From NCBI GenBank assembly GCA_021464245.1, contig JADCRB010000036.1, positions 4,793,539 to 4,857,538 of the forward strand: a stretch of 64,000 bases of DNA, given 5' to 3'. Positions within the stretch are counted from its first letter, which is position 1, and the number at the start of each line of letters is the position of its first letter. Origin of the DNA: Carallia brachiata. Lineage: Eukaryota; Streptophyta; Magnoliopsida; Malpighiales; Rhizophoraceae. Shown piece by piece: positions 1,862 through 43,987 of this stretch. Under the pieces are notes generated by a model that searched no databases, was not told the origin of the DNA, and worked only from the letters and a program-made list of their open reading frames with translations. The position numbers and the translations under genes were made by a program.

Positions 1862-1865
1862 ATGG

Positions 1866-1880
1866 GAGAGACTAGAGAGT

Positions 1881-1912
<32 letters not shown>

Positions 1913-16641: not shown

Positions 16642-16660
16642 AATGCCCCACTTCAAGGGT
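16642..16660 (-). other. Element 1 polypurine tract
   Basis: On the sense (minus) strand the bases next to the 3' LTR read GAAGTGGGGCATT, a purine-rich primer site for plus-strand DNA synthesis. Element 2 has the same with one more G at about 34938-34956. Confidence 0.75.
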
Positions 16661-17725: not shown

Positions 17726-17820
17726 CCTATACTTAAGTACCTAGGAGGGATGAACCTTTGACTGACTCCATAAGACCACCAGGACCAGTACGCATGCTCC
17801 CACAGGCTACTGCTTTGATG

Positions 17821-18300: not shown

Positions 18301-18304
18301 GCGG

Positions 18305-18500
18305 GTTAGGAGTTGGATTGGATTTTGAACTTGGGTTCTGGACTGTGTTTGGAACTTGGAATTTTTAGGTCGAGTGTTTGGGCTTTGGATTGGATTTGGG
18401 TCGAGTGTTTGGGTTTTGAACTTGGACTTTTGGATTTGGGTCGGGTGTTTGGGCTTGGATGTTTGGGTTTTGGATTTGGATTTTTGTTTGGACTTTCAGA
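18305..18500. repeat. Imperfect minisatellite upstream of the homeobox ORF (element 1)
   Basis: Repeats of TTTGGGTCGAGTGTTTGGG alternating with TTTGGATTTGGA, with unit lengths of roughly 30-40 bp. Element 2 has its own version at about 36010-36240. It lies just 5' of the homeobox ORF on the sense strand. Confidence 0.8.
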
Positions 18501-18606
18501 TCGGGACTTCCGAACTTTTTTTTTGATTTTTTTTTCTTTTTTGATTTTTTTTCTAATTTTTTTCTTCTTTTTTTTCTATTTTTTTGATTTTTTTTTAAAA
18601 AAAAAA
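18501..18606. repeat. T-rich low-complexity tract (A-rich on sense strand), element 1
   Basis: Long T runs broken by GA and C, between integrase and the minisatellite. On the sense strand it is poly(A)-like, perhaps a remnant of a captured transcript's tail, which is inference. Confidence 0.75.
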
Positions 18607-18655
18607 CATATTTACACAAATACTGTTTCAGAAATTTACCATTGATCGGGCCGAT

Positions 18656-19624
18656 TCAGACGCCTTCTTGGTCTGACAGCATGTAAGCGTTGTGAGTATA
18701 GGCCTCCTGCACTAAGTATGGCCCGTCCCATTTGGAAGTAAGCTTGTCACCAGGCCGATGCTTCATGTTGATGGGCCGTCGCACTGCAAGAACAAGGTCT
18801 CCAACTTGAAAAGATCGAGGGCGGACCCTGCGGTTGAACGTGTTGGTGAGCCGAGCTTGGTAGCACTCAAGTTGCTGTTGTGCTTCGAGCCTCCTTTCAT
18901 CGAGGGCTTCTAACTCATCCAGACGTAGGCGAGTATTTTCCTCCTGTGTGAGTCCTTCCAGAATAGCCATGCGCAGAGATGGAATCTGTTTCCAACGGCA
19001 GTATTGCTTCGACACCGTAGACAAGTGAGTATGACGTCGCCTGTGTTGGAGTCCGGTAAGTTGTACGATACGCCCATAATGCCTCCAGAATTCTGTCATG
19101 CCAATCTCTTTTGGATTTAGAGACTACTTCCGCAATAGGTTGCATAAGGTCTTGTTGAATGCTTCAGCCAAGCCATTTGCTGGGGCATTGTACATGGATG
19201 ACTTGTACTGCTTGAACTTGAATTTCTCGCAGAGCTTGTCAATCAAGCTGTTGTAGAACTGCTTGCCATTATCAGTGATGATGAATCGAGGGACTCCATA
19301 GCGATAGATCAGCTGAATCCGGATGAAATTTGCAACATGTTCTTTCTTTACCTCTCTAAGTGGAATAGCTTCGGCCCATTTTGAGAAGTAGTCTGTTGCT
19401 GCGAGGATGTAAAGGTGACCCAGGGATGACTTTGGCAAGGGCCCCACTAAGTCAAGACCCCAAGCTTCAAAGGGCCAGGATGAGACAGTTGGATGCAGTG
19501 GCTCCGGTGGTTGATGTATGTAATTGACGTGAAATTGACAAGCTTGACAAGTTTTAGCAAACTCAATGGAATCACGTACCATGGTTGGCCAGTAGTATCT
19601 CATCCTTCTGAGTTGGAAGTGCAA
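18656..19624 (-). pseudogene. Integrase, element 1 (frame broken)
   Basis: Integrase inserts the DNA copy into the host genome. An N-terminal zinc-finger part ends CQACQF. The catalytic core has D in GLDLVGPLPKSS, D in ITDNGKQF and E in NGLAEAFNKTL, with exactly 35 residues between the last two (the DD35E pattern). The C-terminal part has the RSFQVGDLVLAVRRPIN and SKWDGPYLVQEAY motifs typical of Ty3/gypsy integrases. The frame shifts around 19130 and again near 18990. Confidence 0.92.
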
Positions 19625-19903
19625 CTTAGGCCCCGATTGATGTCCGCCACAAACACCTGAATGTGCTTCACGAGAGCTTGTTTTGCCTCTTCATTGTCTA
19701 GGCAGCGAAGCAAAACTCCATCAAAAGATCTTCGATACAGAGCATCCTTGAGATATATGAAGCGGGGAGCTCGTCGTTGAATTTCTGTCTTATGACGACA
19801 ATTTTCAGGCAGCTTCCCGTACTGTAGGTAGTGAATGATTGGTTGGCGCCAATCCTCGTCCTCCGCGAGACGTACAGATACATCGTTGGCTGCTGTAGTT
19901 TCT

Positions 19904-20347
19904 TCATCCTTTCTGTGGCACTATCCATTTCTGGCATACGGCAACAACTGTAGCCTGGATTTCTGATTTTGCAAGAGAGGTGGTCAGGTTAGTCAACGCG
20001 TCTGCCCGAGTATTTTCTCGTCGGGGCACATGCTCCAAGGTGATGCTTTCAAATTTATCCATTAGCTGTCGAGCACGTTGATGGTAAGACACAAGATCCT
20101 CTTTCTTCACGTCATACAACCCTGTAAGTTGGTTGATAACGAGCTGGGAATCTCCATGAACTTCTATAGTTGGAATCTTCATATCGACATTCATTTGAAG
20201 ACCAATGATTAAAGCCTGGTATTCAGCAACATTATTTGAACATAACTCACCGAGAATGATAGCATATGGTAGTATTTGTCGTTGAGGAGTGACAAACACT
20301 ATGCCGGCACCAGCACCATCACGCCTTGCTGCACCATCAAAGAACAT
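19904..20347 (-). CDS. Second RNase H domain (aRH), element 1
   Basis: A complete RNase H fold of the RVT_3 type: FFDGAARRDGAGAG (first Asp), NNVAEYQALI (Glu), HGDSQLVINQL (Asp) and ENTRADALTNL (Asp), so the catalytic acidic set is intact. It sits between the degenerate first RNase H and integrase, the arrangement of the Tat lineage. It removes RNA from the RNA/DNA hybrid during reverse transcription. Confidence 0.9.
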   Translation of the reverse strand: MFFDGAARRDGAGAGIVFVTPQRQILPYAIILGELCSNNVAEYQALIIGLQMNVDMKIPTIEVHGDSQLVINQLTGLYDVKKEDLVSYHQRARQLMDKFESITLEHVPRRENTRADALTNLTTSLAKSEIQATVVAVCQKWIVPQKG

Positions 20348-20419
20348 CGTCCATGGTGGTGTGTCTCAATGTAAAAGACCTCTTCATCTGGAAGATCATC
20401 TGTGAACTCCCAATCTGAC

Positions 20420-21932
20420 GGAATAGGGTGATCTGCAAGGAAGTCTGCTAGAGCTTGTCCTTTGACTGCTTTTTGAGGCACGTAGACAATGTCGTAGCTT
20501 TGTAGGATTACTGCCCACTTGGCAAGTCGTCCTGACAAGATTGGTCTAGATAAGATATATTTGACAGGATCAGCTCTGGCAATGAGACGTACCGTGTGAG
20601 CTTGCATGTAGTGCCTCAGCTTGTCAATGGCAAAGAACAGTGCTAGACATGTCTTTTCAATGGGCGAATAACTCAGCTCCGGACCGTTTAGTGTTCTGCT
20701 CAAGTAGTACAGGGCAACTTCCTTTCCCTGCTCGTTTTCCTGTGCAAGCAAGGCTCCCAAAGATCTTTCCTGCGCTGCAATGTAGAGAATCAACGACTTT
20801 CCTTGAATTGGAGCTCCTAGGACCGGTGGATTGGAAAGGTACTTCTTTATGCTCTCAAAGGCTTTGCTGCAAGCTTCGTCCCACTCGAAGTTGACATCCT
20901 TCTTCATCAACCGATGGAAAGGTTGACATCTCCCAGCTAAATTGGAGATGAAACGGCGAATGTAGGCCAGCTTTCCTTGTAGACTTCGCAGCTCGTGCAG
21001 GTTTTTAGGTTCAGGCATCTTTTGAATTGCCTCAACCTTTGACTGATCAACTTCGATTCCACGATGGCGCACCACGAACCCAAGAAACTTTCCTGATGTG
21101 ACACCGAATGCGCACTTGAGAGGGTTCATTTTGAGCTGATGCCTCCGAAGTCTTTCGAACACTGTCTTGAGATCCTCGAGGTGGTCTTTGCGCTTCTTAG
21201 TCTTTACAACTAAGTCATCAACATAACATTCTACAATCTTGTGCAGCATGTCATCAAAAATTTTTTGCATAGCACGTTGATAAGTGGCGCCAGCATTTTT
21301 AATCCAAACGGCATAACTTTGTAGCAGTATATACCTTTTGGGGTGCGGAATGCTGTCAACTCCTCGTCTTCTGGTGCCATTCTGATTTGGTTATAGCCTG
21401 AAGAACCATCCATGAAGGACAATGCTTCGTGACCCGTTGTTGCATCGACTGTGATCTCCGTTATGGGCAACGGAAAGTCATCTTTCGGGCAGGCCTGTTA
21501 AGATCTCGAAAATCAACACATACCCTCAACTGTCCATTCTTCTTTCTTACCGGGACAATGTTGGCAATCCACGTTGGGTAGGTGACCTCTCGGATGAAGC
21601 CGCATTGATCAGCTTGTTACCTCCTCCTCGATTTGTGGAATGAGTTCCGGGCGGAACCGTCGTTGTGGCTGCTTGACAGAACGAACACCCTTCTTTACTG
21701 CTAGACGATGCACCGCAATTTTCGGGTCAAGTCCAGGCATTTCTTTGTAACTCCATGCGAACACGTCCCTGTATTGACTTAATACCTGAACATATTCTTG
21801 CTCTTCTTCTGCAGTAAGTAAAGCACTTACAAATGTAGGTCGAGGATCTTCCGGAGAGCCAAGATTGACCTCCTTGAGTTCATCAACAGTTGCTTGGCCA
21901 CCATCTTCAAGTTCCGGGGGAGCCTCCTTCAC
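20420..21932 (-). pseudogene. Reverse transcriptase and first RNase H, element 1 (frame broken)
   Basis: RT copies the element RNA. It begins with the conserved stretch around YRDVFAWSYKEMPGLDP and KQPQRRFRPEL, then EALSFMDGSSGYNQIRMAP, FRTPKGIYCYKVMPFGLK and the active-site ECYVDDLVVKT. The following RNase H has LYIAAQERSLGALLA, where the usual first Asp is replaced, while IEKTCLALFFA and RADPVKYIL remain. It is therefore probably inactive, as expected when a second RNase H has taken over. Single-base losses relative to element 2 break the frame near 21600, 21490 and 21297. Confidence 0.93.
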
Positions 21933-22789
21933 TTCACCATCTGATGAGTCGACTCAGCCTCCTCGCTAATTGTGACATGAAATGCAGAACCTCTGACTTC
22001 ACCTTCTTTGTTTGACTGGATAAGCCTGTCTTGTTTGGTGGTGGTGGTGATGGCACGTGCATCAGCTGCTCGGCTTCGGCTCTTTAGCGTGATCCGCACA
22101 GGTGACTTCTCCTGATAGCCTAAGCCAGGTCGGGACTGTGATGTTTGAGAAGCGGCGCCATGTGTGGACGGCAGCGTACCCATTGTGCTCGGGTTTGAGA
22201 AGTCATAGCCCGCCTTTGCCAAAAGCTTGTATGCATTAGGATCAAATCCTTCATGTGTTCTTCTTTCTGGAAGTGAGCCGCCTTCGACTGCCCCCGTGTG
22301 TGGTTTGACGAAGCCTTTTAATGGTTTTGAAGACAAAACCGGCTCAATCTTTGGTATCGGCAGAGTGTAAGTCTCCTTCAGGTTGTGCAGCTCCTTTGTT
22401 TTGGGTTGGCTATGTCCTTGCTCCTGTTTAGAATCAATACAATAAGAGAAAGGGGGTTGACCTTCTGAGCGTCGTGACTTCGGCACATAGCGTAGGACTG
22501 GAGTGGAGCTTGAAGATGCAACATCCTTCGGACGAAGTTCAGCAGGCTGTGGCAGCTTTTCATTTGTTGGAGCCTGGGGTTGGGCATTGGCAGGTTCTTC
22601 GACAGCTTTTCCCTTTTTGTGGATGCCCCCAGTCCAAGTAGCTTTTGATGGAATGATCTCCGGATTGTCTGTGTCGGTGTAGAAGACTGCATCCGCCAAA
22701 TGTGATTCAGCATCATCGAACGGCTTTAAGTCAGCATTGACCTTTTGAACGCCACCATTGTAGTACTTGAAGCACTGATGCAGGCTTGA

Positions 22790-23170
22790 GAGCACAACTC
22801 CATTTCCATGAATCCACGGTCGTCCTAGCAACATCTTATATGTGGTACGTGCATCATCACGTGAAATAGAGTGCTAGAAGTGAGATTACCGATAGTTAGC
22901 TCCAAGCGAATCATCCCAATTGCTTTCTGTCCTCCTTGATTAAAGCCATGAATCATCAAGCGGCTGTCTGATAATTCATCAATGCCGCCGAGCTCCTTTA
23001 TGGTGGATTTTGGGATAATATTGACTGCCGAACCATCGTCGATCAGAATACGTCGGACCTTCTGTCTCTCACATAGCCTGATACATACAGCGGCCGATTG
23101 TGGGGTTTGGACCCCAGCAGGAGATCCTCATCTGAAAATGAGATAGCAGAGTAACATCCGACGTGATTTT
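22790..23170 (-). pseudogene. Aspartic protease region, element 1
   Basis: Retroviral-type protease that cuts the polyprotein. The active-site motif reads RILIDDGSAVNIIP at about 23025-23060, the D-[TD]-G-[SA] site with Asp in the second position. KMLLGRPWIHGNG (about 22825) is the downstream flap/C-terminal signature. The frame is broken relative to element 2. Confidence 0.85.
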
Positions 23171-23374
23171 GGGCCGTGTTGCTCCGTGAGTTAGAATCAT
23201 TTGATGGCTGTGATTCAGCTGAGGTCTGGAGAGTATTGCTGACTTGATTTTGCCACACTTCTGTTGATTGCAAAGCTATAAACAGCTGAGGGTTAGCGAG
23301 AAGGGTTTGGAGAGCTTCATATACCTTCTCCGTTGTCGACTTTTTGTTGTCGAGCGGCTCCTCCTTACGGTGTG

Positions 23375-25055
23375 TCACTCTTCTGATGGTTTTGAAGTGA
23401 TGGTGGTCTGGTTTGCCGAGGTTATGCCTTCCTGGTCCAGAATGATTTTATTCTGGCTTTTGAGCTTCATGATTAGCTCCTTCAGGACGAAACACTTCTC
23501 GGTTGGATGACTTACTATCCGGTGATATTTGCAGAATCTCGGATCGCTGACTCGATCCTTTTCATTCGGCCGCTTGCACTCTGGGAGTTCGATCAGCTTC
23601 GCCTCCAAGAGTTGTCAAGAATGTCGGGGACGTCTGAGTCGGGAATGGATACTGCTTTGCTCCAAGCTCGCAATGTCACCTTCCGCCTTTGTTTTGGCTG
23701 AGTTATTTGGGTCGGAGGATTTACCTTAGCTTTGGCGCCCACTTTTACTGGTGCGGCTTCAACAGTCATCACTTCTTTCCTTTTCCGGAGCTGTTGGGTT
23801 TCTTAATCTCCCTTCTGCCCCCTTGCTGGTCCAACTGGATGGGAACCGTGCCTCCGGAAGTCTGGATGCTTATCTCCATATCATGTGCGCGGGTCGCCAG
23901 TTCTTCGAAGTTCGGGGTTTGACACCCTGCAGGATGTATAACAGCTCCCAATGCATTCCCTGGATGCACATCTCTACGGCAGAAGTCTCCGTCAGGCGAT
24001 CTTTGCAGTCCAAGCTGAGGGCACGCCATCTGTTGATGTATTCGACAACGGGCTCTCCTTTCTTTGTTTGGTGCTGGTAAGCTCCATCATACTTACCGTC
24101 CTTCGAGTGCTGAAAAATCTGTTGAGGAACTCTCGTTGTAGCTGTTCCCAACTGTCGATCGATTCTGGTTCAAGATTTATGAACCAGGTGAAAGCGGTCT
24201 CCCGAGTGAACGAACAAACTGCTTCACCAAGAGATCTCCGTAAGTCCCTGCGTTGTTGCAGGTTTCAACGAAGTGGGCGATGTGCTGTTTGGGATCGCCT
24301 CGTCCGTCGAATTGTTGAAATTTGGGCGGCTGGTAGCCCAAGGCATGTTGAGACTTTCGATCCGTCTGGTGTACGGTTTGACGTACATCTGTGATCCTTG
24401 GAAGAGTTGTTGCAGTCGGATCGTATTGGCTATCATTTCCTGCAATTGTTGAACAGATAGCGAAGCTACAGAATTTGAGGGTGGCAGCTGTGTAGAACTA
24501 CCTGGTCGCTTTTCTGCAGGAAGACGTCGGCTGGTGTGGCTTCTGGAGTGAAACCGGGTGGATATGGTTGCTCCTCGCGGATTTCGGGATCAATTGGATC
24601 GGGGCTTTTCCTTTGAGAGCGGCGATCTGTTGATCTTTTTCCTCCACGACTCTGATCAGCTGCAAAATTTTGTTCTCCAATTGAAATCTTTCCTCTGTGC
24701 TGGTTGTGTTGGTCATCATGACGGCAACAGATGAGGCTCCGGGAAAGACTGGGGGAGAAACTCTTCTGATTCCTTGTGATCTACAGAATGAGTTGATTCT
24801 GTTGAGCAGGCTTCGTCGTGTTGCCCCCGACTTCGATCGGGGTGGGTGATCGACTCCTCCATGCGGCAAGAGAGTCAGGGGAGAGATCCTGTTGTGGCAG
24901 CTGTGGACTCTCCTTTCGATATTTTTCGGGTTTGGACGGCAAGAAATTGTGTCCGTCCCCGGGTTTCTGGACCTGCGTACCCAGGTAGGGTAGTTGATGC
25001 AGGCAATGGAGCCGTTGCCTTCTTTGGTAGCAGTTGTACTCCTTTTCGGTGCCAT
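23375..25055 (-). pseudogene. Gag polyprotein, element 1 (frame broken)
   Basis: Structural protein of the virus-like particle. It starts MAPKRSTTATKEG at 25055. The retrotransposon gag domain can be followed through frames near 24445-23870, by comparison with the better copy in element 2. The C-terminal part has DPRFCKYHRIVSHPTEKCFV, a Cys/His motif typical of Tat-type gag-protease junctions. Multiple frameshifts. Confidence 0.85.
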
Positions 25056-25079
25056 TTGATGTGCTGAACACCTGTAAAA

Positions 25080-25202
25080 TTTTTTTTTTTTTACTTTTTA
25101 CTTTTTACTTTTTTTTTTTTCTTTTTTTTTTCTTTTTTTTTTTTTTTTTTTTTTTTTTCTTTTTTTTTCGGCTCTTTTTTTTTTTCCTTTTTTTTTTTTT
25201 TA
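25080..25202. repeat. T-rich low-complexity leader tract, element 1
   Basis: Long T runs between the primer-binding site and gag; A-rich on the sense strand. The counterpart in element 2 (42818-42994) is longer and contains TTTTTAC units. Confidence 0.85.
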
Positions 25203-25227
25203 AGGAACAAGAGATGGGAGGTGAAGA

Positions 25228-25245
25228 TTCCCACCGAGCGTGCCA
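25228..25245 (-). other. Primer-binding site, element 1
   Basis: On the sense strand TGGCACGCTCGGTGGG follows the 5' LTR after six bases. It begins TGG, the complement of a tRNA's CCA end. I have not assigned the tRNA. Element 2 has the same site at 43030-43047. Confidence 0.8.
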
Positions 25246-25251
25246 AAAATT

Positions 25252-26045
25252 TGTAAAGCGTAAATTTCGAGTCTAAAACAATTAAACTCAAAATACAAAA
25301 ATAAATTACAAATAAAAATTGTAAAAAAAAAAATTTACGTGGGGTCGATCTCCGTAGATCCTCCGATTAGTGTTCCTTTTTTTACTCCGTCAAGGGCTGC
25401 ACGAGCTTGATCTTGACAGAAATAATTTCCACAACTTTATCTTGAACTGGGTAGACTGAAATCGGATCTGATTTGGACGTTTTGACTACGGTTAAGAACC
25501 GCAGAGACCTGATCTGAGCCGATCTGACGTAATTTCACCGAGGGTCGAAGGGACTTGTTCTCGGATGAGCTGTGGATTTTGCTGAGGGCCGTATGAGACT
25601 TAATCTCAGCCGGATTTGTAATATTTTGATATTTTCAGATCTATATTCTCATAAATTCAGATCTAGGGCGATCGGAATATAAATCTAAAAATAATTTTAG
25701 AAATGGAAACAGAAAATTTTTTGGGGTTTACCCCTGAAATATCTCTCAAAAAGGAGTTAGGAGAGTATACTGCAGAGTAAAACACGTAAGAAAAGGAGAA
25801 ATTTTCTTAAGAGATTTTCAAAATTTTCTTTTTCTTTCAAATTTTCTGAATTTTCTTATTTACAGATTTGCTGAATGTGTTTTGAACTGAGGGGCAGAGG
25901 CCTATTTATAGGGTTTCTTGCCCATGTGAACATCACATGGGAAAGGAATCTTTTAATTATTTTTTTTCCTTGGTCGGCGTTGCCGACTTTGAAATCGGTA
26001 ACGCCGATTTTGACTTTTCTTATCTTTTTTTTTTTTTCATTTACA
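25252..26045 (-). repeat. Element 1, 5' LTR with promoter
   Basis: Sense-strand TATA box TATAAATA at 25910-25903, inside CCTATAAATAGG. Upstream of it in U3 are two inverted repeats: arms CCCATGTGA / TCACATGGG (25921-25941), and a longer palindrome around CGGCGTTGCCGA (about 25976-26007). Confidence 0.93.
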
Positions 26046-26253
26046 ACAATTATACGCATAATCACCTACAACTTATAATTGATTACAAATTTTTATAATG
26101 ATTACTAAAATCTTAATAATATATTATATTATAAGAAAATAATCAACAATTATATATACATTAGATATTTGAATAAATTAAAAATTAGAAGTAAAGAATT
26201 ATAATGAATAAAATTTAATAACAAAATGAATAAATAAATAAAATGATATCAAT

Positions 26254-34121: not shown

Positions 34122-34937
34122 TATAAAGCGTAAATTTCGAGTCTAAAATAATTAAACTCGAAAATACAAAAATAAATTACAAATAAAAATTTAAAATAAA
34201 AAAAAATTTATGTGGTTCGATCTCCATAGATCCTCCGATTAGTGTTCCTTTTTTTGACTCCGTCAAAGGCTGCACGAGTTTGATCTTGACAGCAGTAAAT
34301 TCCACAGGTTTTTCTTGAACTGGGTAGACTGAAACTGGATCTGATTTGAACGTTTTCACTATGGTTACGAACCGCAGAGAGCTGATCTGAGCCGATCTGA
34401 CTTAATTTCATCGAGGGTCGAAGAGACTTGTTCTCAGGTGAGCTGCCTGGATTTTGCTGAGGGCCGTATGAGGCTTAATCCCAGCCAGATTTGTAGTAAT
34501 TTGATATTTTTAACTCTATATTCTCAGAAATTCAGATTTAGAGCGATCCAAGAATATAAATTTAAAAATAACTTTAGAAATGGAAACAGCAAATTTTTTG
34601 GGCCTTACCCCTAAAATATCTCTCAAAACGGAGTTAGGAGAGTATACTGCTAAGTAAAAGTACGTAAGAAAAGGAGAAATTTTCTTGAGAGATTTTCAAA
34701 ATTTTCTTTTTCTCTCAAATTCTCTGAATTTTTCTGTTTACAGATTTGCTGAATGTGTTTTGAACTGGGGGGCAGGGGCCTATTTATAGGGTTCCTTTCC
34801 CATGTGAACATCACATGGGAAAGGAATCTTTTTAATTTAATTTTTCTTTAGCTGGCGTTGCTGATTTCAAAATCAGCAACGCTGGCCTTTGACTTCTATT
34901 TTTTTTTTTCTTTCTTTCTTTAAAAATGATGTTTACA
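34122..34937 (-). repeat. Element 2, 3' LTR
   Basis: Pairs with 43054-43834. It retains the complete U3 palindrome (GGCGTTGCTGATTT / AAATCAGCAACGC type) that is half-deleted in the 5' LTR. The polypurine tract GAAGTGGGGGCATT lies immediately inside. Confidence 0.93.
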
Positions 34938-35414
34938 AATGCCCCCACTTCAAAGGTTGGTAACGAAGATTTTTACAGAAATGATCCGCACCGAGTCTTG
35001 AAGTCCAGTTTGAAACTTGGAAATGTCCTGATGAACATTGAATCTTGGAGTCTTCTATCTTTGACCATGCCTACTGTTGTTTGATCGCAATAGGAACCCG
35101 ATACGATCTTGAGAAAGTTAGCAGCCCAGCCAATATAAAAATTGACCTTCTGGCTCCAGGTGTATTCGAGCTTCCATAGCCCGCAAAGGATTTTTATATC
35201 TCTTAAAGTTCCAGAGCTCTGGTGAGGATGATCCGGTAGGCAAAGAACTTGAACCTCCCCAAGAGGAAGGCCCAGCACTTTGGAACTTTAAGACCTGCGC
35301 ACAGAGAGACTGACTGTAGTGATGATTCCTAAGTCTGCTTCGACGTAAGGAGAGTAGTTGGAACTTCCCCGTACATCGCCGCATCCAAAGGAAGATTAGG
35401 ATAATTGCAGCGTC

Positions 35415-36000
35415 TCATCCCTCTACAAGACTTAAGTATCTATGAGGGATGAACCCTTGGCTGACTCCGTAAGACCGCCAGGACCAGCGTGCATGCTCCC
35501 ATGGGCTACGGCTTTGATGAACATACCGTGGAGAGACTATTGTGGTGGAAGAACTCGGACCTGCTTCATTTGACGGCGAAGTCGTACTGGTGGGATCTAC
35601 CATCGGAACAGCAGACTGTTCTTTGGAAAAATCAGCTCTCAGTGCTGGTTTCTTCCTGCTTCTCCGATTCTGGAACCAATAAAACACATTTTTTCCTTCG
35701 ATTGCCCCGAGTGGGCGCAATCGTGAGACAAGTTGGTAAATCTGAGATGCATTAGGCATAATACCTCCATTGTTGTGGAAGACTTCCTCTAGAATTTGCA
35801 GTTGCGCCATGGTTGGTTGCCACCTTGTGCGGGGTGACCTTTCTTCTCCCTTTCTTGAGGTTCTGCAACTGGTTCCATCTTTCTTGTGGCAGAGGAGCAA
35901 AGGTCTGGTGTGGTGAAGATCGATTGAGACTGATGCTGAGTTTCAGACTCAAACCCTCCGTCGCTTTTATATTTTTGGGCCGTTCACAGTTTATACTCAT
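35415..36000 (-). pseudogene. WUSCHEL-type (WOX) homeobox ORF inside element 2
   Basis: The homeodomain frame is open from about 35900 to 35415. The homeodomain (about 35831-35646) has RTRWQPTMAQLQILEEVF (helix 1), then SQIYQLVSRLRPLGAIEG, then KNVFYWFQNRRSRKK (helix 3). The GAIEGKNVFYWFQN block is close to the WOX signature, and the spacing is longer than in ordinary 60-residue homeodomains, as in WOX proteins. After it come a Ser/Thr/Pro-rich stretch and a stop at 35415. The ATG at 36000, shared with element 1, is out of frame here because of a 2-bp deletion near 35910. With no downstream partner ATG obvious, the start is uncertain. Not antisense: same strand as gag-pol. Confidence 0.9.
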
Positions 36001-36009
36001 GCGGGCCAG

Positions 36010-36240
36010 GAGTTGGATTGGATTTTGAACTTGGTTTCTGGACTGTGTTTGGAACTTGGAATTTTTGGGTTTTGGGCTTTGGATTGATTTGGGTCGAGTG
36101 TTTGGGTTTTGGATTTGGATTTGGATTGGGTCGAGTGTTTGGGTTTGACTTTTGGATTTGGGTTGAGTGTTTGGGTTTTGGGTCGACTGGGCTCAAGTGT
36201 TTGGGTTTGGACTTTCGCTTGTTTTTCAGATCGGGACTTG
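36010..36240. repeat. Imperfect minisatellite upstream of the homeobox ORF (element 2)
   Basis: GGGTCGAGTGTTTGGGTTTT and GGATTTGGATTTGG blocks repeated with unit lengths of about 30-40 bp. The arrangement differs from element 1, so the array has been evolving since the copies separated. Confidence 0.82.
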
Positions 36241-36355
<115 letters not shown>

Positions 36356-36361
36356 ACATAT

Positions 36362-37402
36362 TTACACATAATACTGTTTCAGAAATTTACCATTGATTGG
36401 GCCGATTCGGACGCCTTCTTGGTCTGACAGCATGTAAGCGTTGTGAGTGTAGGCCTCCTGCACTAAGTATGGCCCGTCCCATTTGGAAGTAAGCTTGTCA
36501 CCAGGCCGATGCTTCATGTTGATGGGCCGTCGCACTGCAAGAACAAGGTCTCCAACTTGAAAAGATCGAGGCGGACCCTGCGGTTGAACGTGTTGGTGAG
36601 CCGGGCTTGGTAGCACTCAAGTTGCTGTTGTGCTTCGAGCCTCCTTTCATCGAGAGCTTCTAACTCATCCAGACGTAGGCGAGCATTCTCCTCCTGTGTG
36701 AGTCCTTCCAGAACAGCCATGCGCAGGGATGGAATCTGTGTTTCCAACGGCAGTATTGCTTCGACACCGTAGACAAGTGAGTATGGCGTCGCCTGTGTTG
36801 GAGTCCGGTAAGTTGTACGATACGCCCATAATGCCTCCGGAATTCTGTCATGCCAATCTCTTTTGGATTTAGAGACTACCTTCCGCAACAGGTTGCATAA
36901 GGTCTTGTTGAATGCTTCGGCCAAGCCATTTGCTGGGGCATTGTACATGGATGACTTGTACTGCTTGAACTTGAACTTCTCGCAGAGCTTGTCGATTAAG
37001 CTGTTGTAGAACTGCTTACCATTATCAGTGATGATGAATCGAGGGACTCCATAGCGATAGATCAGCTGAGTCCGGATGAAATTGGCAACATGCTCCTTCT
37101 TTACCTCTCTAAGTGGAATGGCTTCAGCCCATTTTGAGAAGTAGTCGGTTGCTGCGAGGATGTACAGGTGACCCAGGGATGACTTTGGCAAGGGCCCCAC
37201 TAAGTCGAGACCCCAAGCTTCAAAGGGCCAGGATGAGACAGTTGGATGCAGTGGCTCCGGTGGTTGATGTATGTAATTGCATGAAATTGACAAGCTTGAC
37301 AGTTTTAGCAAACTCAATTGAATCACGTACCATGGTTGGCCAGTAGTATCCCATCCTTCTGAGTTGGAAGTGCAACTTAGGCCCGATTGATGTCCGCCAC
37401 AA
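36362..37402 (-). pseudogene. Integrase, element 2 (frame broken)
   Basis: The catalytic core is intact in one frame: GLDLVGPLPKSS (D), ITDNGKQFYNS (D) and NGLAEAFNKTL (E), then LWAYRTTYRTPTQATPYSLV. The C-terminal SFQVGDLVLAVRRPIN and SKWDGPYLVQEAY blocks are in a second frame (36616-36362). The zinc-finger part is disrupted near 37300, where the CQACQ motif of element 1 is lost by a frameshift. Confidence 0.92.
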
Positions 37403-37689
37403 ACACCAGAATGTGCTTCAGTGAGAGCCTGTTTTGCCTCTTCATTGCTAGGCAGCGAAGTAAAACTCCATCAAAAGACCTTCGATACAGAGCATCCTTG
37501 AGATATATGAAGCGGGGAGCTCGTCGTTGAATTTCTGTCTTATGACGACGATCTTCGGCAGCTTCCCGTGCTGTAGGTAGTCAATGATTGGTTGGCGCCA
37601 ATCCTCGTCCTCCGCGAGACGTACAGATACAGCGTTGGCTGCTGTAGTTTCTTCATCATCCTTTGTGGCACTATCCATTTCTGGCATAC

Positions 37690-38097
37690 GGCAACAACTG
37701 TAGCCTGGATTTCTGACTTTGCAAGAGAAGTGGCCAGGTTAGCCAACGCGTCTGCCTGAGTGTTTTCTCGTCGAGGCACATGCTCCAAGGTGATGCTTTC
37801 AAATTCATCCATTAGCTGTCGAGCACGTTGATGGTAAGGCGCAAGGTCCTCTTTCTTCACGTCATACAATCCTGTAAGTTGGTTGATGACGAGCTGGGAA
37901 TCTCCATGGACTTCTATAGTTGGAATCTTCATATCGACAGCCATTTGAAGACCAATGATCAAAGCCTGGTATTCAGCAACATTATTTGAACATAACTCAC
38001 CGAGAATGATAGCATATGGTAGTATTTGTCGTTGAGGAGTGACAAACACTATGCCGGCACCAGCACCATCACGCCTTGCTGCACCATCAAAGAACAT
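37690..38097 (-). CDS. Second RNase H domain (aRH), element 2
   Basis: FFDGAARRDGAGAG, NNVAEYQALI, HGDSQLVINQL and ENTQADALANL give the four acidic positions in order, all present. It is continuous in frame with the preceding connector, which includes the SDWEFTDDLPDEEVFYIE linker. Tat-lineage hallmark. Confidence 0.9.
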
Positions 38098-38258
38098 CGT
38101 CCATGGTGGCAGTGTCTCAATGTAAAAGACCTCTTCATCTGGAAGATCATCTGTGAACTCCCAATCTGACGGAACAGGGTGATCTGCAAGGAAGTCTGCT
38201 AGAGCTTGTCCTTTGACTGCTTTTTGAGGCACGTAGACAATGTCGTAGCTTTGTAGGA

Positions 38259-39935
38259 TTACTGCCCACTTGGCAAGTCGTCCTGACAAGATTGGTCTAG
38301 ATAAGATATATTTGACAGGATCAGCTCTGGCAATGAGACGTACCGTGTGAGCTGCATGTAGTGCCTCAGCTTGTCAATGGCAAAGAACAGTGCTAGACAT
38401 GTCTTTTCAATGGGCGAATAACTCAGCTCCGGACCGTTTAGTGTTCTGCTCAAGTAGTACAGGGCAACTTCCTTTCCCTGCTCGTTTTCCTGTGCAAGCA
38501 AGGCTCCCAAAGATCTTTCCTGCGCTGCAATGTAGAGAATCAACGACTTTCCTTGAATTGGAGCACCTAGGACGGTGGATTGGAAAGGTACTTCTTTATG
38601 CTCTCAAAGGCTTTGCTGCAAGCTTCGTCCCACTCGAAGTTGACATCCTTCTTCATCAACCGATGGAAAGGTTGACATCTCCCAGCTAAATTGGAGATGA
38701 AACGGCGAATGTAGGCCAGCTTTCCTTGTAGACTTCGCAGCTCGTGCAGGTTTTTAGGTTCAGGCATCTTTTGAATTGCCTCAACCTTTGACTGATCAAC
38801 TTCGATTCCACGATGGCGCACCACGAACCCAAGAAACTTTCCTGATGTGACACCGAATGCGCACTTGAGAGGGTTCATTTTGAGCTGATGCCTCCGAAGT
38901 CTTTCGAACACTGTCTTGAGATCCTCGAGGTGGTCTTTGCGCTTCTTAGTCTTTACAACTAAGTCATCAACATAACATTCTACAATCTTGTGCAGCATGT
39001 CATCAAAAATTTTTTGCATAGCACGTTGATAAGTGGCGCCAGCATTTTTCAATCCAAACGGCATAACTTTGTAGCAGTATATACCTTTTGGGGTGCGGAA
39101 TGCTGTCAACTCCTCGTCTTCTGGTGCCATTCTGATTTGGTTATAGCCTGAAGAACCATCCATGAAGACAATGCTTCGTGACCCGTTGTTGCATCGACTG
39201 TGATCTCCGTTATGGGCAACGGAAAGTCATCTTTCGGGCAGGCCTTGTTAAGATCTCGAAAATCAACACATACCCTCAACTGTCCATTCTTCTTTCTTAC
39301 CGGGACAATGTTGGCAATCCACGTTGGGTAGGTGACCTCTCGGATGAAGCCGCATTGATCAGCTTGTTCACCTCCTCCTCGATTTGTGGAATGAGTTCCG
39401 GGCGGAACCGTCGTTGTGGCTGCTTGACAGAACGGACACCCTTCTTTACTGCTAGACGATGCACCGCAATTTTTGGGTCAAGTCCAGGCATTTCTTTGTA
39501 ACTCCATGCGAACACGTCCCTGTATTGACTTAATACCTGAACATATTCTTGCTCTTCTTCTGCAGTAAGTAAAGCACTTACAAATGTAGGTCGAGGATCT
39601 TCCGGAGAGCCAAGATTGACCTCCTTGAGTTCATCAACAGTTGCTTGGCCACCATCTTCAAGTTCCGGGGGAGCCTCCTTCACTTCACCATCTGATGAGT
39701 CGGAATCAGCCTCCTCGCTAATTGTGACATGAAATGCAGAACCTCTGACTTCACCTTCTTTGTTTGACTGGATAAGCCTGTCTTGTTTGGTGGTGGTGGT
39801 GATGGCACGTGCATCAGCTGCTCGGCTTCGGCTCTTTAGCGTGATCCGCACAGGTGACTTCTCCTGATAACCTAAGCCAGGTCGGGACTGTGATGTTTGA
39901 GAAGCGGCGCCATGTGTGGACGGCAGCATACCCAT
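38259..39935 (-). pseudogene. Reverse transcriptase and first RNase H, element 2 (frame broken)
   Basis: Frames at 39935-39297 (VFAWSYKEMPGLDP, RRFRPELIPQIEEEV), 39163-38567 (MDGSSGYNQIRMAP, YKVMPFGLKNAGATYQ, ECYVDDLVVK) and 38543-38259 (LYIAAQERSLGALLA, IEKTCLAL). The RT catalytic YVDD is intact. The first RNase H lacks its first Asp as in element 1, so this is a family trait and not a local mutation. Confidence 0.93.
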
Positions 39936-40160
39936 TGTGCTCGGGTTTGAAAGTCATAGCCCGCCTTTGCCAAAAGCTTGTATGCATTAGGATCAAATCC
40001 TTCATGTGTTCTTCTTTCTGGAAGTGAGCCGCCTTCGACTGCCCCCGTGTGTGGTTTGACGAAGCCTTTTAATGGTTTTGAAGACAAAACCGGCTCAATC
40101 TTTGGTATCGGCAGAGTGTAAGTCTCCTTCAGGTTGTGCAGCTCCTTTATTTTGGGTTGG

Positions 40161-40922
40161 CTATGACCTTGCTCCTGTTGACCTTCTGAGCGTCGTGACT
40201 TTGGCACATAGCGTAGGACTGGAGTGGAGCTTGAAGATGCAACATCCTTCGGACGAGTTCAGCAGGCTGTGGCAGCTTTTCATTTGTTGGAGCCTGGGTT
40301 GGCATTGGCAGGTTCTTCGACAGCTTTTCCCTTTTTGTGGATGCCCCCAGTCCAAGTAGCTTTTGATGGAATGATCTCCGGATTGTCTGTGTCGGTAGAA
40401 GACTGCATCCGCCAAATGTGATTCAGCATCATCGAACGGCTTTAAGTCAGCATTGACCTTTTGAACGCCACCATTGTAGTACTTGAAGCACTGATGCAGG
40501 CTTGAGAGCACAACTCCATTTCCATGAATCCACGGTCGTCCTAGCAACATCTTATATGTGGTACGTGCATCAATCACGTGAAATAGAGTGCTAGAAGTGA
40601 GATTACCGATAGTTAGCTCCAAGCGAATCATCCCAATTGCTTTCTGTCCTCCTTGATTAAAGCCATGAATCATCAAGCGGCTGTCTGATAATTCATCAAT
40701 GCCGATGCCGAGCTCCTTTATGGTGGATTTTGGGATAATATTGACTGCTGAGCCATCGTCGATCAGAATACGTCGGACCTTCTGTTCTTTCACATAGCCT
40801 GATACATACAGCGGCCGATTGTGGGGTTTGGACCCCAGCAGGAGATCCTCATCTGAAAATGAGATAGCAGAGTAACATCCGACGTGATTTTGGGCCGTGT
40901 TGCTCCGCTGAGTTAGAATCAT
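40161..40922 (-). CDS. Aspartic protease region, element 2
   Basis: One open frame covers RRILIDDGSAVNIIPKSTI (active site), the RLMIHGFNQGGQKAIGMIRL core and TYKMLLGRPWIHGNG. The upstream GCYSAISFSDEDLLLGSKPH stretch is typical of Tat elements. Probably part of a gag-pol polyprotein; it starts here only because a frameshift separates it from gag at about 40920. Confidence 0.87.
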   Translation of the reverse strand: MILTQRSNTAQNHVGCYSAISFSDEDLLLGSKPHNRPLYVSGYVKEQKVRRILIDDGSAVNIIPKSTIKELGIGIDELSDSRLMIHGFNQGGQKAIGMIRLELTIGNLTSSTLFHVIDARTTYKMLLGRPWIHGNGVVLSSLHQCFKYYNGGVQKVNADLKPFDDAESHLADAVFYRHRQSGDHSIKSYLDWGHPQKGKSCRRTCQCQPRLQQMKSCHSLLNSSEGCCIFKLHSSPTLCAKVTTLRRSTGARS

Positions 40923-41329
40923 TTGATGGCTGATTCAGCTGAGGTCTGGAGAGTATTGCTGACTTGATTTTGCCACACTTCTGTTGATTGCAAAGCTATA
41001 AACAGCTGAGGGTTAGCGAGAAGGGTTTGGAGAGCTTCATATACCTTCTCCGTTGTCGACTTTTTGTTGTCGAGCGGCTCCTCCTTACGGTGTGTCACCT
41101 CTTCTGATGGTTTTGAAGTGATGGTGGTCTGGTTTGCCGAGGTTATGCCTTCCTGGTCCAGAATGATTTTATTCTGGCTTTTGAGCTTCATGATTAGCTC
41201 CTTCAGGACGAAACACTTCTCGGTTGGATGACTTACTATCCGGTGATATTTGCAGAATCTCGGATCGCTGACTCGATCCTTTTCATTCGGCCGCTTGCAC
41301 TCTGGGAGTTCGATCAGCTTCGCCTCCAA
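40919..41329 (-). CDS. Gag C-terminal Cys/His region, element 2
   Basis: Contains DPRFCKYHRIVSHPTEKCFV, a CX2H...H...C arrangement that replaces the classic zinc knuckle in Tat-type elements, followed by a charged linker. The frame meets the protease frame with a shift. Confidence 0.8.
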   Translation of the reverse strand: MEAKLIELPECKRPNEKDRVSDPRFCKYHRIVSHPTEKCFVLKELIMKLKSQNKIILDQEGITSANQTTITSKPSEEVTHRKEEPLDNKKSTTEKVYEALQTLLANPQLFIALQSTEVWQNQVSNTLQTSAESAIK

Positions 41330-41498
41330 GAGTTGTCAAGAATGTCGGGGACGTCTGAGTCGGGGAATGGATACTGCTTCTGCTCCAACTCTCGCAATGT
41401 CACCTTCCGCCTTTCCTGTTGTTTTGGCTGAGTTATTTGGGTCGGAGGATTTACCTTAGCTTTGGCGCCCACTTTTACTGGTGCGGCTTCAACAGTCA

Positions 41499-42796
41499 TC
41501 ACTTCTTTCCTTTTCCGGAGCTGTTGGGTTTCTTAATCTCCCTTCTGCCCCCTTGCTGGTCCAACTGGATGGGAACCGTGCCTCCGGAAGTCTGGATGCT
41601 TATCTCCATATCATGTGCGCGGGTCGCCAGTTCTTCGAAGTTCGGGGTTTGACACCCTGCAGGATGTATAACAGCTCCCAATGCATTCCCTGGATGCACA
41701 TCTCCACGGCAGAAGTCTCCGTCAGGCGATCTTTGCAGTCCAAGCTGAGGGCACGCCATCTGTTGATGTATTCGACAACGGGCTCTCCTTTCCTTTGTTT
41801 GGTGCTGGTAAGCTCCATCATACTTACCGTCCTTCGAGTGCTGAAAAATCTGTTGAGGAACTCTCGTTGTAGCTGTTCCCAACTGTCGATCGATTCTGGT
41901 TCAAGATTTATGAACCAGGTGAAAGCGGTCTCCCTGAGTGAACGAACAAACTGCTTCACCAAGAGATCTCCATAAGTCCCTGCGTTGTTGCAGGTTTCAA
42001 CGAAGTGGGCGATGTGCTGTTTGGGATCGCCTCGTCCGTCGAATTGTTGAAATTTGGGCGGCTGGTAGCCCAAGGGCATGTTGAGACTTTCGATCCGTCT
42101 GGTGTACGGTTTGACGTACATCTGTGATCCTTGGAAGGATGTAGCTTGTTGCAGTCGGATCGTATTGGCTATCATTTCCTGCAATTGTTGAACAGATAGC
42201 GAAGCTACAGAATTTGAGGGTGGCAGCTGTGTAGAACTACCTGGTCGCTTTTCTGCAGGGAAGACGTCGGCTGGTGTGGCTTCTGGAGTGAAACCGGGTG
42301 GATATGGTTGCTCCTCGCGGATTTCGGGATCAACTTGGATCGGGGCTTTTCCTTTGAGAGCGCGATCTGTTGATCTTTTTCCTCCACGACTCTGATCAGC
42401 TGCAAAATTTTGTTCTCCAATTCTGAAATTCTTTCCTCTTGCTGGTTGTGTTGGTCATCATGACGGCAACAGATGAGGCTCCGGGAAAGACTGGGGGAGA
42501 AATCTTCTGATTCTCTGTTGTCTGAATGAGTTGGATTTTTGAGCAGGCTTCGTCGTGTTGCCCCCGACTTCGATCGGGGTGGGTGATCGACTCCTCCATG
42601 CGGCAAGAGAGTCAGGGGAGAGATCCTGTTGTGCAGCTGTGGACTCTCCATTTCGAATTTTGTCGGGTTTGGACGGCAAGAAATTGTGTCCGTCCCCGGG
42701 TTTCTGGACCTGCGTACCCAGGTAGGGTAGTTGATGCAGGCAATGGAGCCGTTGCCTTCTTTTTGTGGCAGCAGTTGTACTCCTTTTCGGTGCCAT
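41499..42796 (-). pseudogene. Gag polyprotein, element 2 (N-terminus shifted)
   Basis: Starts MAPKRSTTAATK at 42796, then shifts frame. The gag domain itself is one good frame, 42184-41600: PPKFQQFDGRGDPKQHIAHF, AFTWFINLEPESIDSWEQL, EFLNRFFSTRR and QRKGEPVVEYINRW. These are the standard motifs of the plant retrotransposon gag family. It forms the particle that packages element RNA. Confidence 0.9.
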
Positions 42797-42817
42797 TTGA
42801 TGTGCTGAACACCTGTA

Positions 42818-42994
42818 AAATTTTTTTTTTTTTTTTTTTTTTACTTTTTTTTTTTACTTTTTTTCTTTTTACTTTTTTTTTTTTACTTTTTTTACTTTTT
42901 TTTTTACTTTTTTTTTTTACTTTTTACTTTTTTTTTTTACTTTTTTTTTTTTTTTTTCTTTTTTTTTTTCTCGGCTCCCCTTTTACCTCTTTTT
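42818..42994. repeat. T-rich low-complexity leader tract, element 2
   Basis: T runs with interspersed TTTTTAC units between primer-binding site and gag. Longer than the counterpart in element 1. Confidence 0.85.
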
Positions 42995-43029
42995 TTTTTT
43001 TTAAGGAACAAGAGATGGGAGGTGAAGAT

Positions 43030-43047
43030 GTCCCACCGAGCGTGCCA
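43030..43047 (-). other. Primer-binding site, element 2
   Basis: TGGCACGCTCGGTGGGAC on the sense strand, six bases after the 5' LTR. Complementary to a tRNA 3' end that I have not identified. Confidence 0.82.
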
Positions 43048-43053
43048 AAAATT

Positions 43054-43834
43054 TGTAAAGCGTAAATTTCGAGCTAAAACAATTAAACTCGAAAATACAA
43101 AAATAAATTACAAATAAAAATTTAAAATAAAAGAAAATTTACGTGGGGTCGATCTCCGTAGATCCTCCGATTAGTGTTCCTTTTTTGACTCCGTCAAGGG
43201 CTGCACGAGCTTGATCTTGACAGAAATAATTCCACAGCTTTTTCTTGAACTGGGTAGACTGAAACCGGATCTGATTTGGACGTTTTGACTACGGTTAGAA
43301 CCGCAGAGACTGATCTGAGCCGATCTGACTTAATTTCACCGAGGGTCGAAGAGACTTGTTCTCGGATGAGCTGCCTGGATTTTGCTGAGGGCCGTATGAG
43401 GCTTAATCCCAGCCGGATTTGTAGTAATTTGATATTTTTAACTATATTCTCAGAAATTCAGATCTAGAACGATCCAAGAATATAAATTTAAAAATAACTT
43501 TAGAAATGGAAACAGCAAATTTTTTGGGCTTTACCCTTGAAATATCTCTCAAAACGGAGTTAGGAGAGTATACTGCTAAGTAAAAGCACGTAAGAAAAGG
43601 AGAAATTTTCTTGAGAGATTTTCAAAATTTTCTTTTTCTCTCAAATTCTCTGAATTTTTCTGTTTACAGATTTGCTGAATGTGTTTTGAACTGGGGGGCA
43701 GGGGCCTATTTATAGGGTTCCTTTCCTATGTGAACATTACATGGGAAAGAAATCTTTTTAATTTAATTTTTCTTTGGCCGGCGTTGCTGATTTTGACTTT
43801 TTTTTTTTTTTTTTCTTTAAAAATGATGTTTACA
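43054..43834 (-). repeat. Element 2, 5' LTR with promoter
   Basis: TATAAATA at 43714-43707 on the sense strand. The short CACATG palindrome upstream carries two changes, and the longer U3 palindrome has lost one arm (near 43783-43795), in contrast to the 3' LTR at 34122-34937. Confidence 0.93.
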
Positions 43835-43987
43835 AGAAATTCACTTAAAAACATTGATACAATAAATTTTACATTAAGAAGTAACATAAAACGCACAGAG
43901 CGCTGCATGAAACTTTGAAGGAACTCCGCATTCGTGCATTTATTTCCTTAGTACGAACATATAGTGGAGATCTGAAGGTTATTAACC

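What the first reader, a model, noticed from the sequence alone, without database searches (positions are those of the whole stretch)
35646..35831. A WUSCHEL-type homeodomain carried by a Tat Ty3/gypsy retrotransposon
Seen: in both elements a sense-strand ORF between integrase and the 3' LTR encodes a WOX-like homeodomain, with RTRWQPTMAQLQILEEVF, the long WOX-type loop, GAIEGKNVFYWFQN and RRSRKK. Known: WOX factors control meristem and organ identity; Tat elements often carry extra ORFs in this region, usually without known function. I know of no report of a homeobox there, though my knowledge is limited. Inference: a host WOX coding sequence was captured, without introns in the homeobox, by an ancestor of the family. 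The element could express or titrate a developmental regulator.
Basis: partly seen in the sequence, partly recalled or inferred. Interest (0 to 1): 0.95.

Follow-up and report, generated by a model that had tools for sequence, protein, structure and literature searches.

The report
WUSCHEL-like gene inside a plant retrotransposon
A numerous family of plant jumping genes carries its own version of WUSCHEL, the switch protein that keeps plant stem cells in their stem-cell state, with both the DNA-binding part and the repressor tail motifs, which raises the question whether the jumping gene uses a developmental master regulator for itself.

Summary
The homeodomain is real: Pfam E=1.6e-12 at window 35649-35831 (-), closest to WUSCHEL by sequence and fold. 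It lies in sense between integrase and 3' LTR of a Tat-type Ty3/gypsy element. Neither window copy is whole: one has a stop inside the homeodomain, the other lacks ~600 bp with the C-terminus. The held host genome (337.5 Mb) shows more. 150 places score; open copies encode a ~207-aa protein with homeodomain, WUS-box (TLPLFPEY) and EAR-like end. Eight of 8 loci fetched by integrase hits carry the gene; 1 of 8 is open throughout. WUS's base-reading residues are kept; dimer residue F101 is not (36 of 36). Shared homeodomain variants are depleted of amino-acid changes against an LTR-derived neutral spectrum, modestly (p=0.036 and 0.017, uncorrected); the C-terminus is not. LTR pairs differ by 0.2-1.6% in six other copies, so the family moved recently. 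Strong WUS sites are not enriched in the LTRs. Seven aimed literature searches found no homeobox in a plant LTR element. Best reading: an element-borne WUS-type DNA-binding repressor acting in trans; function untested.

The parts
34124..43835 (-). Element E2, Tat-type Ty3/gypsy LTR retrotransposon carrying the homeodomain ORF
   Evidence: Self-comparison: 8.4 kb alignment, 94% identical to E1, LTRs at both ends. Domains gag, protease (below Pfam cut-off), second RNase H, integrase from E2; RT and first RNase H from E1
34124..34938 (-). 3' LTR of E2
   Evidence: 31 substitutions in 779 aligned bases against the 5' LTR; TTTCT flanks both ends if the terminal ACA has decayed (read by eye)
43053..43835 (-). 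5' LTR of E2
35415..35942 (-). Accessory ORF of E2 (175 aa, stop to stop, no ATG before the homeodomain, lacks WUS-box and EAR-like end)
   Evidence: missing stretch relative to E1 17126-17730
35649..35831 (-). WUS-type homeodomain in E2
   Evidence: Pfam PF00046 E=1.6e-12; WUSCHEL 6ry3 E=1.9e-18, ungapped alignment
36064..36211 (-). Minisatellite-like array between integrase and the ORF in E2
36517..37470 (-). Integrase core region of E2
   Evidence: Pfam rve E=7.8e-11
37543..38373 (-). Second RNase H (RVT_3), hallmark of Tat
   Evidence: Pfam RVT_3 E=3.3e-25
41603..42454 (-). gag of E2
   Evidence: Pfam Retrotrans_gag E=2.3e-15
15847..26046 (-). Element E1, second copy of the same family
   Evidence: LTRs 15847-16642 and 25251-26046, 48 substitutions in 789 aligned bases
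17947..18129 (-). Homeodomain of E1, interrupted by an in-frame stop
   Evidence: position from the register of repeat D11
17521..17820 (-). E1 frame with the WUS-box segment (NLPLFPEYSGSIN)
20302..21390 (-). Reverse transcriptase and first RNase H of E1
   Evidence: Pfam RVT_1 E=5e-15, RT_RNaseH E=2e-23

Best explanation
A Tat-type Ty3/gypsy family took up the coding sequence of a WUS-clade WOX gene, most simply as spliced RNA, and has kept it as a sense accessory gene between integrase and the 3' LTR. Open copies encode a ~207-aa protein that starts MEPVAEPQ..., folds into a WUS-type homeodomain and ends in a WUS-box and an EAR-like motif. Mechanism (inferred): after expression from the element, perhaps from a spliced or subgenomic RNA, the protein enters the nucleus, binds TGAA/TAAT-type host sites through the retained base-reading residues, probably as a monomer because the dimer residue F101 is replaced, and recruits TOPLESS-type co-repressors through the C-terminal motifs. 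Acting in trans on host genes, as a partial WUS mimic or competitor in meristem cells, it would favour copies that reach germ-line precursors. Shown: gene, architecture, linkage to the element, recent movement, modest homeodomain constraint. Inferred: expression, binding, co-repressor recruitment, benefit to the element.
For: Homeodomain; fold model of one open copy (mean pLDDT 91-95 over residues 21-70, the rest low), with all 11 PDB matches at E<=0.001 being WUS or STENOFOLIA chains, 1.1-1.6 A to the four TGAA-bound WUS chains. Contact residues after PMC7203112 (passages): R38, W39, I66, K82, N83, N90, R100 in 36 of 36 ungapped homeodomains (of 40 loci), Q89 and R94 in 35 of 36, Y86 in 31, F101 in 0 of 36. 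Of 71 distinct loci (69 score-ranked, plus E1 and E2) 44 are open from homeodomain to WUS-box, 31 of these with TLPLFPEY, and 40 to the EAR-like motif; 41 have the MEPV/MKPV start in frame. Linkage: 8 of 8 loci fetched downstream of integrase hits. Selection: shared homeodomain variants N:S 0.67 (4:6) in 10 loci not chosen by ORF score, against 2.53 expected (p=0.036), and 1.32 (29:22, p=0.017) in 69 ranked loci; whole-ORF shared variants 1.56 against 2.47 in the 69 (p=0.005) while singletons there are 2.58, i.e. neutral. Recent movement: LTR pairs differ at 2/859 to 11/677 sites in six copies.
Against: No constraint is detectable on the C-terminus with the WUS-box and EAR-like motif (all variants N:S 2.85 in the 10 loci and 2.33 in the 69, against 2.08; shared variants in the 10 loci even 15:2). 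The p-values are uncorrected for the 24 tests made, and variants were counted against one copy, not an ancestor. Whole-ORF shared variants in the 10 loci miss significance (1.55, p=0.06), and their singletons are also low (1.80, p=0.047), which a source-lineage effect alone does not predict. Shared-versus-singleton contrasts are not significant by Fisher's test (p=0.16, 0.22; 0.70). Only 1 of 8 integrase-found loci is open throughout. No WUS motif is enriched in the LTRs. No expression data. The homeodomain carries NVFYWFQNR, the signature of the intermediate, not the modern WOX clade (PMC6788696).
Confidence: 0.55

Rival explanations
1. Passenger: the family picked up a WOX coding sequence by chance and it has been copied along without function, as reported for other transduced fragments.
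For: Only 1 of 8 integrase-found loci open throughout; C-terminus at neutral N:S; E1 and E2 both broken; uncorrected p-values near 0.02-0.04 for the homeodomain.
Against: It is present in 8 of 8 such loci and in subfamilies differing at dS about 0.4 in the homeodomain; base-reading residues nearly invariant in 36 score-ranked copies; homeodomain N:S below neutral in both samples; 44 of 71 loci (69 of them score-ranked, so favourable) open to the WUS-box.
Confidence: 0.27
2. Auto-regulator: the protein binds its own LTRs or internal sequence and tunes transcription of the element, like an accessory transactivator of a retrovirus.
For: Accessory genes in this position act so in retroviruses (comparison made in PMC7264820, passages). 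Tandem repeats lie next to the ORF. E1 and E2 each hold one TCACGTGA and one TTAATGG, at matching internal places.
Against: TGAATGAA, TCACGTGA and TTAATGG are absent from all 8 LTRs tested (only about 0.0-0.2 each were expected, so absence alone says little), and TGAA and TAAT are at shuffled levels; TGAATGAA is absent from all of E1 and E2. The protein's own preferred site is unknown, and helix 3 differs from WUS.
Confidence: 0.09
3. Integration guide: the homeodomain tethers the integration complex to chosen chromatin.
For: A predicted DNA-binding protein encoded next to integrase; DNA-binding functions are suggested for Retand accessory ORFs (PMC11963269, passages).
Against: The ORF is separate from integrase and keeps repressor-type motifs; no insertion-site bias was tested.
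Confidence: 0.06
4. Coincidence: a host WOX gene that happens to lie between the LTRs in this window.
For: None beyond the similarity to WOX genes.
Against: The same ORF sits downstream of integrase in 8 of 8 fetched loci, and similar ORFs score at 150 places; nine host WOX loci lie elsewhere and differ.
Confidence: 0.01

Closest known systems
Phalaenopsis Ogre-like (Tat) Ty3/gypsy elements with a 2-ODD m6A demethylase ORF (PMC9289625; passages and section 12 read)
   Same: Tat-lineage element with an additional ORF encoding a captured, conserved host-type protein, kept through several rounds of replication
   Different: An RNA demethylase, not a transcription factor; activity shown in vitro there, nothing biochemical shown here
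Additional ORFs of Retand, Grande and RIRE2 between pol and 3' LTR (PMC7264820, PMC11963269; passages read)
   Same: Same place in the element; some predicted to bind DNA or found in the nucleus
   Different: Those named there are antisense, several with a TRP28/transposase-28 domain; here sense with a WUS-type homeodomain
YgdH/LONELY GUY domain in Citrus and B3 domain in Aegilops gypsy consensuses (PMC9289625 section 12)
   Same: Developmental-regulator domains carried by gypsy elements
   Different: No homeobox named in that section; the paper's full chart of rarer domains was not open to me
WUSCHEL and the modern WOX clade (PMC7203112, PMC6788696; passages)
   Same: Homeodomain with the WUS loop length and base-reading residues, WUS-box, EAR-like end
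   Different: About 50% homeodomain identity, NVFYWFQNR instead of NVFYWFQNH, F101 lost, continuous ORF, multi-copy and element-borne
DNA methyltransferases captured by retrotransposons of dinoflagellates and charophytes (PMC5890265; search listing with start of abstract only)
   Same: Capture of a nuclear regulator by retrotransposons
   Different: Enzyme rather than transcription factor; other hosts
P0107, unnamed 201-aa protein from a 1094-bp ENA contig
   Same: Same layout: homeodomain of WUS length, TLPLFPVH, VDLELRLGSS; homeodomain identity to the element ORF 42-50%, to host WOX 31-39%, to Arabidopsis WUS 38%
   Different: By substitution score it is hardly nearer to the element ORF (146-149) than to WUS (145); setting and organism unknown; R94 replaced by L

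Membership tests
Tat lineage of Ty3/gypsy | RT with RNase H plus a second RNase H before integrase | tested here: met
   RT_RNaseH and RVT_3 both above Pfam cut-off (the two ORFs come from E1 and E2 of one family). That this marks Tat is stated in PMC9289625 (passage)
Tat lineage of Ty3/gypsy | RT phylogeny inside Tat | not tested
   No reference RT set was fetched
LTR retrotransposon | TG...CA LTRs, polypurine tract, 5-bp target duplication | tested here: met
   TGTAAACA...TTTACA ends and GAAGTGGGGGCATT before the 3' LTR; GTAAA (C92) and GTGGG (C81) duplications, none for C86, others not readable (read by eye)
WOX, modern (WUS) clade | WOX homeodomain | tested here: met
WOX, modern (WUS) clade | WUS-box T-LX-LFPXX (PMC9781121, passages) | tested here: met
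   TLPLFPEY in 31 of the 44 distinct loci open that far, of 71 examined; absent from the E2 frame
WOX, modern (WUS) clade | NVFYWFQNH signature (PMC6788696, passages) | tested here: not met
   The residue after WFQN is R, Q or (rarely) other, not H, in the copies printed; mostly NVFYWFQNR
WUS/WOX5 subclade | WUS-box together with EAR motif L[DE]LRLS or L[DE]L[ST]LN (PMC6788696) | tested here: inconclusive
   ELDLELHL/ELDLELRL in 38 of the 40 loci open that far, of 71 examined; general EAR form met, exact subclade form not
WUSCHEL orthologue | Nests in the WUS clade of a homeodomain tree | tested here: not met
   Five element rows form one fork (94/100) on a long branch outside the WUS fork (98/95); 64 columns, so weak
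WUSCHEL-type DNA binding | Base-reading R38, Q89, N90, R94 | tested here: met
   36, 35, 36 and 35 of 36; binding itself not tested
WUSCHEL-type DNA binding | Cooperative dimer via F101 | tested here: not met
   A, T or D in 36 of 36
TOPLESS-recruiting repressor | Binding to TOPLESS | not testable with these tools
   Motifs only

The most novel reading that the evidence does not exclude
A plant retrotransposon family uses its own WUSCHEL-type repressor as a developmental effector: it alters meristem or stem-cell state, or blunts WUS-linked defences there, so that new copies enter the germ line. It would be the plant counterpart of a retrovirus carrying a captured growth regulator, and the orphan P0107 would suggest that such element-borne WUS proteins exist in more than one lineage.
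Probability: 0.2. Interest if true: 0.97.

Novelty: new variant of a known kind. Interest (0 to 1): 0.82.

Why it matters
Accessory genes of plant LTR elements are common but mostly of unknown function. Here one has a precise, testable identity: a stem-cell transcription factor with its DNA-contact residues and repressor motifs. In Arabidopsis, shoot stem cells are the route to the germ line and many LTR families are transiently expressed there (PMC7560203, passages), so an element-encoded WUS-like protein makes the question whether retrotransposons manipulate plant meristems directly testable. It also warns that homeobox surveys of such genomes may count element copies as WOX genes.

Tried and rejected
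LTR auto-regulation by known WUS sites: no enrichment. Relatives in IMG/VR and in one prokaryote genome collection: none. A close relative in the protein collection: none found; the hits listed are ordinary WUS/WOX proteins of many plants, plus the orphan P0107 (6 hits of 36 candidates; 636 hits, only the best 120 listed, 7994 candidates scored; 4 hits of 393 candidates, one of them the query). Host WOX9/11/13-type genes and distant element ORFs in the own genome: not completed. Species of the host: not identified. First selection estimates (homeodomain dN/dS 0.15-0.33 at dS above 0.1; ORF 0.38-0.45) came from copies ranked by protein score and are biased low; I replaced them by the nucleotide-level count with an LTR-derived neutral spectrum and a sample not chosen by ORF score, which is weaker. 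One search's tree is too short (64 columns) to name the donor gene.

Rows dropped: 4 of 40 loci without an ungapped homeodomain; 16 of 40 not open to the end; 11 loci that repeat a place already counted, before the count of 71 (still holds them). In one search my own check line for the WFQN position used a wrong offset (it printed 0); it is not used.

Full report
What is in the window. Two copies of one LTR retrotransposon family lie on the minus strand, E1 at 15847-26046 and E2 at 34124-43835. In sense order the family has gag, protease (below Pfam's cut-off), reverse transcriptase with RNase H, a second RNase H, and integrase (the RT/RNase H reading is from E1, the others from E2). The double RNase H marks the Tat lineage of Ty3/gypsy; an RT tree was not made. 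The LTRs run TG...CA. In two other copies of the family 5-bp target duplications can be read (GTAAA, GTGGG), in a third not.

The homeodomain. The ORF at 35415-35942 (-) scores 47.5 bits against Pfam Homeodomain (cut-off 22.9). Two solved sequences match: WUSCHEL (1.9e-18) and STENOFOLIA (4.7e-16), and only WUSCHEL aligns without a gap, because the ORF shares the one-residue-longer WUS loop. A fold model of an open copy from the same genome gives three helices with mean pLDDT of 91-95 over residues 21-70, and the 11 structural matches at E<=0.001 are all WUS or STENOFOLIA chains. The rest of that model is of low confidence (mean pLDDT 61 overall).

Both window copies are broken. E1 has a stop inside the homeodomain. 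E2 has no ATG in frame before the homeodomain and lacks a stretch of about 600 bp (E1 17126-17730) that in E1 holds the WUS-box segment. The window alone therefore understates the gene.

The family in its genome. The genome of the window is held (337.5 Mb, 164 contigs). A search with the ORF scored the 150 best of 2638 first-look candidates; 135 of the 150 have no stop inside the match. In 40 fetched loci the longer copies run on to GETLPLFPEYSGS and end in DEVELDLELHLGPR. The first is a WUS-box (T-LX-LFPXX, PMC9781121, passages), the second an EAR-like [LVI]-X-[LVI]-X-[LVI] motif. Counting 71 distinct loci (69 score-ranked, plus E1 and E2), 69 have no stop in the homeodomain stretch, 44 are open as far as the WUS-box (TLPLFPEY in 31), 40 as far as the EAR-like motif, and 41 have the MEPV/MKPV start in frame, in the context AAGATGG in the 4 printed. 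These counts are favourable, since copies were ranked by protein score.

A check not chosen by the ORF. I searched with the C-terminal part of integrase instead (151 matches, 150 scored of 2365 candidates) and fetched the stretch downstream of 8 of the listed hits (16 had been asked first). I picked them by eye down the list; none of the 8 is among the ORF hits listed, so they lean towards poorer ORF copies. All 8 carry the WOX ORF; one is open throughout, the others have stops or frame breaks. The gene is thus a regular part of this family, and most of these copies are decaying, as expected for a retrotransposon. More distant Tat families were not examined.

Residues that matter. In the WUS structure paper (PMC7203112, passages) R38, Q89, N90 and R94 read bases, K82, N83 and Y86 hold the backbone, and F101 serves dimerisation; [quoted passage not shown] Among 36 ungapped homeodomains (of 40 loci) R38, K82, N83 and N90 are invariant, Q89 and R94 are kept in 35, Y86 in 31, K92 is replaced by R in 35 and R96 by K in 32; F101 is A, T or D in all 36. 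The prediction is a TGAA/TAAT-type binder that works mainly as a monomer.

Selection. Pairwise dN/dS falls from about 1 between near-identical copies to 0.15-0.33 between distant ones for the homeodomain (31 distinct sequences) and to 0.38-0.45 for the whole ORF (24 open copies). Because these copies were ranked by score I built a control. The substitution spectrum of eight LTR pairs predicts N:S of 2.53 (homeodomain), 2.08 (C-terminus) and 2.47 (ORF) under neutrality. In 10 loci not chosen by ORF score (the 8, E1 and E2) shared homeodomain variants show N:S 0.67 (4:6, p=0.036) and all homeodomain variants 1.46 (p=0.023); whole-ORF shared variants 1.55 (p=0.06) and singletons 1.80 (p=0.047). 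In 69 ranked loci shared variants show 1.32 in the homeodomain (p=0.017) and 1.56 over the ORF (p=0.005), while ORF singletons show 2.58, the neutral value. The C-terminus is not below neutrality in either sample (2.85 and 2.33; shared 15:2 in the 10 loci). These p-values are uncorrected, and variants are counted against one copy, L017. Fisher tests of shared against singleton variants are not significant. I read this as modest evidence for constraint on the DNA-binding part and none yet for the repressor motifs beyond their presence.

Age. Counting substitutions only, LTR pairs differ at 2/859, 4/723, 8/928, 10/857, 12/917 and 11/677 sites in six copies, 31/779 in E2 and 48/789 in E1. The six come from ten copies chosen among high-scoring ORF hits; for the other four no full LTR pair was found in the fetched pieces. 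The family moved recently; I give no absolute date.

Origin. In the own genome nine WUS-clade WOX loci were seen: two WUS-like, two WOX1-like, two WOX4-like, one each resembling WOX2, WOX3 and WOX5 (subclade names are my reading of the homeodomains). In both WUS-like genes the homeodomain and WUS-box stretches lie 0.8-0.9 kb apart, more than the protein between them needs, so at least one intron is inferred, while the element ORF is continuous. Five element homeodomains form one fork (94/100) outside the WUS fork (98/95), on a long branch. By score the nearest are WUS proteins (up to 53% identity); the WOX3-like host gene reaches 55% identity but needs a gap and scores lower. The combination of a WUS-length loop, WUS-box and EAR-like end points to the WUS/WOX5 side of the family; the NVFYWFQNR string is that of the intermediate clade (PMC6788696, passages) and may be a later change. 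The donor is unresolved and the capture may be old.

A possible second case. A 201-aa orphan protein from a 1094-bp ENA contig, P0107, has the same layout (homeodomain, TLPLFPVH, VDLELRLGSS). Its homeodomain is nearer to the element ORF (42-50% identity) than to host WOX genes (31-39%) or Arabidopsis WUS (38%), but by substitution score the difference to WUS is slight (146-149 against 145). A search with it found three other proteins, all at 43% identity or less over half the query or less. Its setting is unknown and its branch too long to place.

How it most likely works. The 8 LTRs tested hold none of the strong WUS sites (TGAATGAA, TCACGTGA, TTAATGG; few were expected by chance), and TGAA or TAAT are at shuffled levels; E1 and E2 each have one TCACGTGA and one TTAATGG in the internal part. 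Self-activation through known WUS sites is therefore not favoured, though the protein's own site is unknown. A DNA-binding repressor acting in trans on host genes fits the parts best. In Arabidopsis, shoot stem cells are the way to the germ line and LTR elements are transiently expressed there (PMC7560203, passages), so a WUS-like protein could pay off for an element. This step is inference.

Literature. Ten searches were made, seven of them aimed at a homeobox or accessory ORF in an LTR element. Neither their listings nor the passages I read of papers on accessory ORFs show a homeobox in a plant LTR element. The closest case is the m6A demethylase ORF of orchid Tat elements (PMC9289625). That paper screened 121 genomes and names other captured domains, but its full chart of rarer domains was not open to me, and most subscription papers are not held, so a prior mention cannot be excluded.

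Noticed in passing
window 500-3741 with 55839-59042; 7756-9623 with 60998-62857; 12324-13486 with 62849-64000: A second set of direct repeats (84-90% identical) flanks the two Tat elements on either side, probably another repeat family or a duplicated block.
   Followed up: no
window 10792-11505: Tandem-repeat-like block with offsets of about 80-100 bases seen in the self-comparison.
   Followed up: no
L038, L042, L045, L048, L099: A diverged subfamily of the ORF (FYNDGGIVPNSTQILQ..., NVYFWFQNRRHRE) that keeps the base-reading residues; homeodomain dS about 0.42, dN about 0.145 to the main group, from one distinct sequence against 30.
   Followed up: partly
P0107 (protein collection, 1094-bp ENA contig): Orphan protein with the same homeodomain, WUS-box and LELRLG layout, possibly a second element-borne WUS-type gene.
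   Followed up: partly
L084 (3' region of the C104 copy): The fetched 3' region aligns to the 5' LTR in two places, suggesting two adjacent LTR stretches with an N in the assembly.
   Followed up: no
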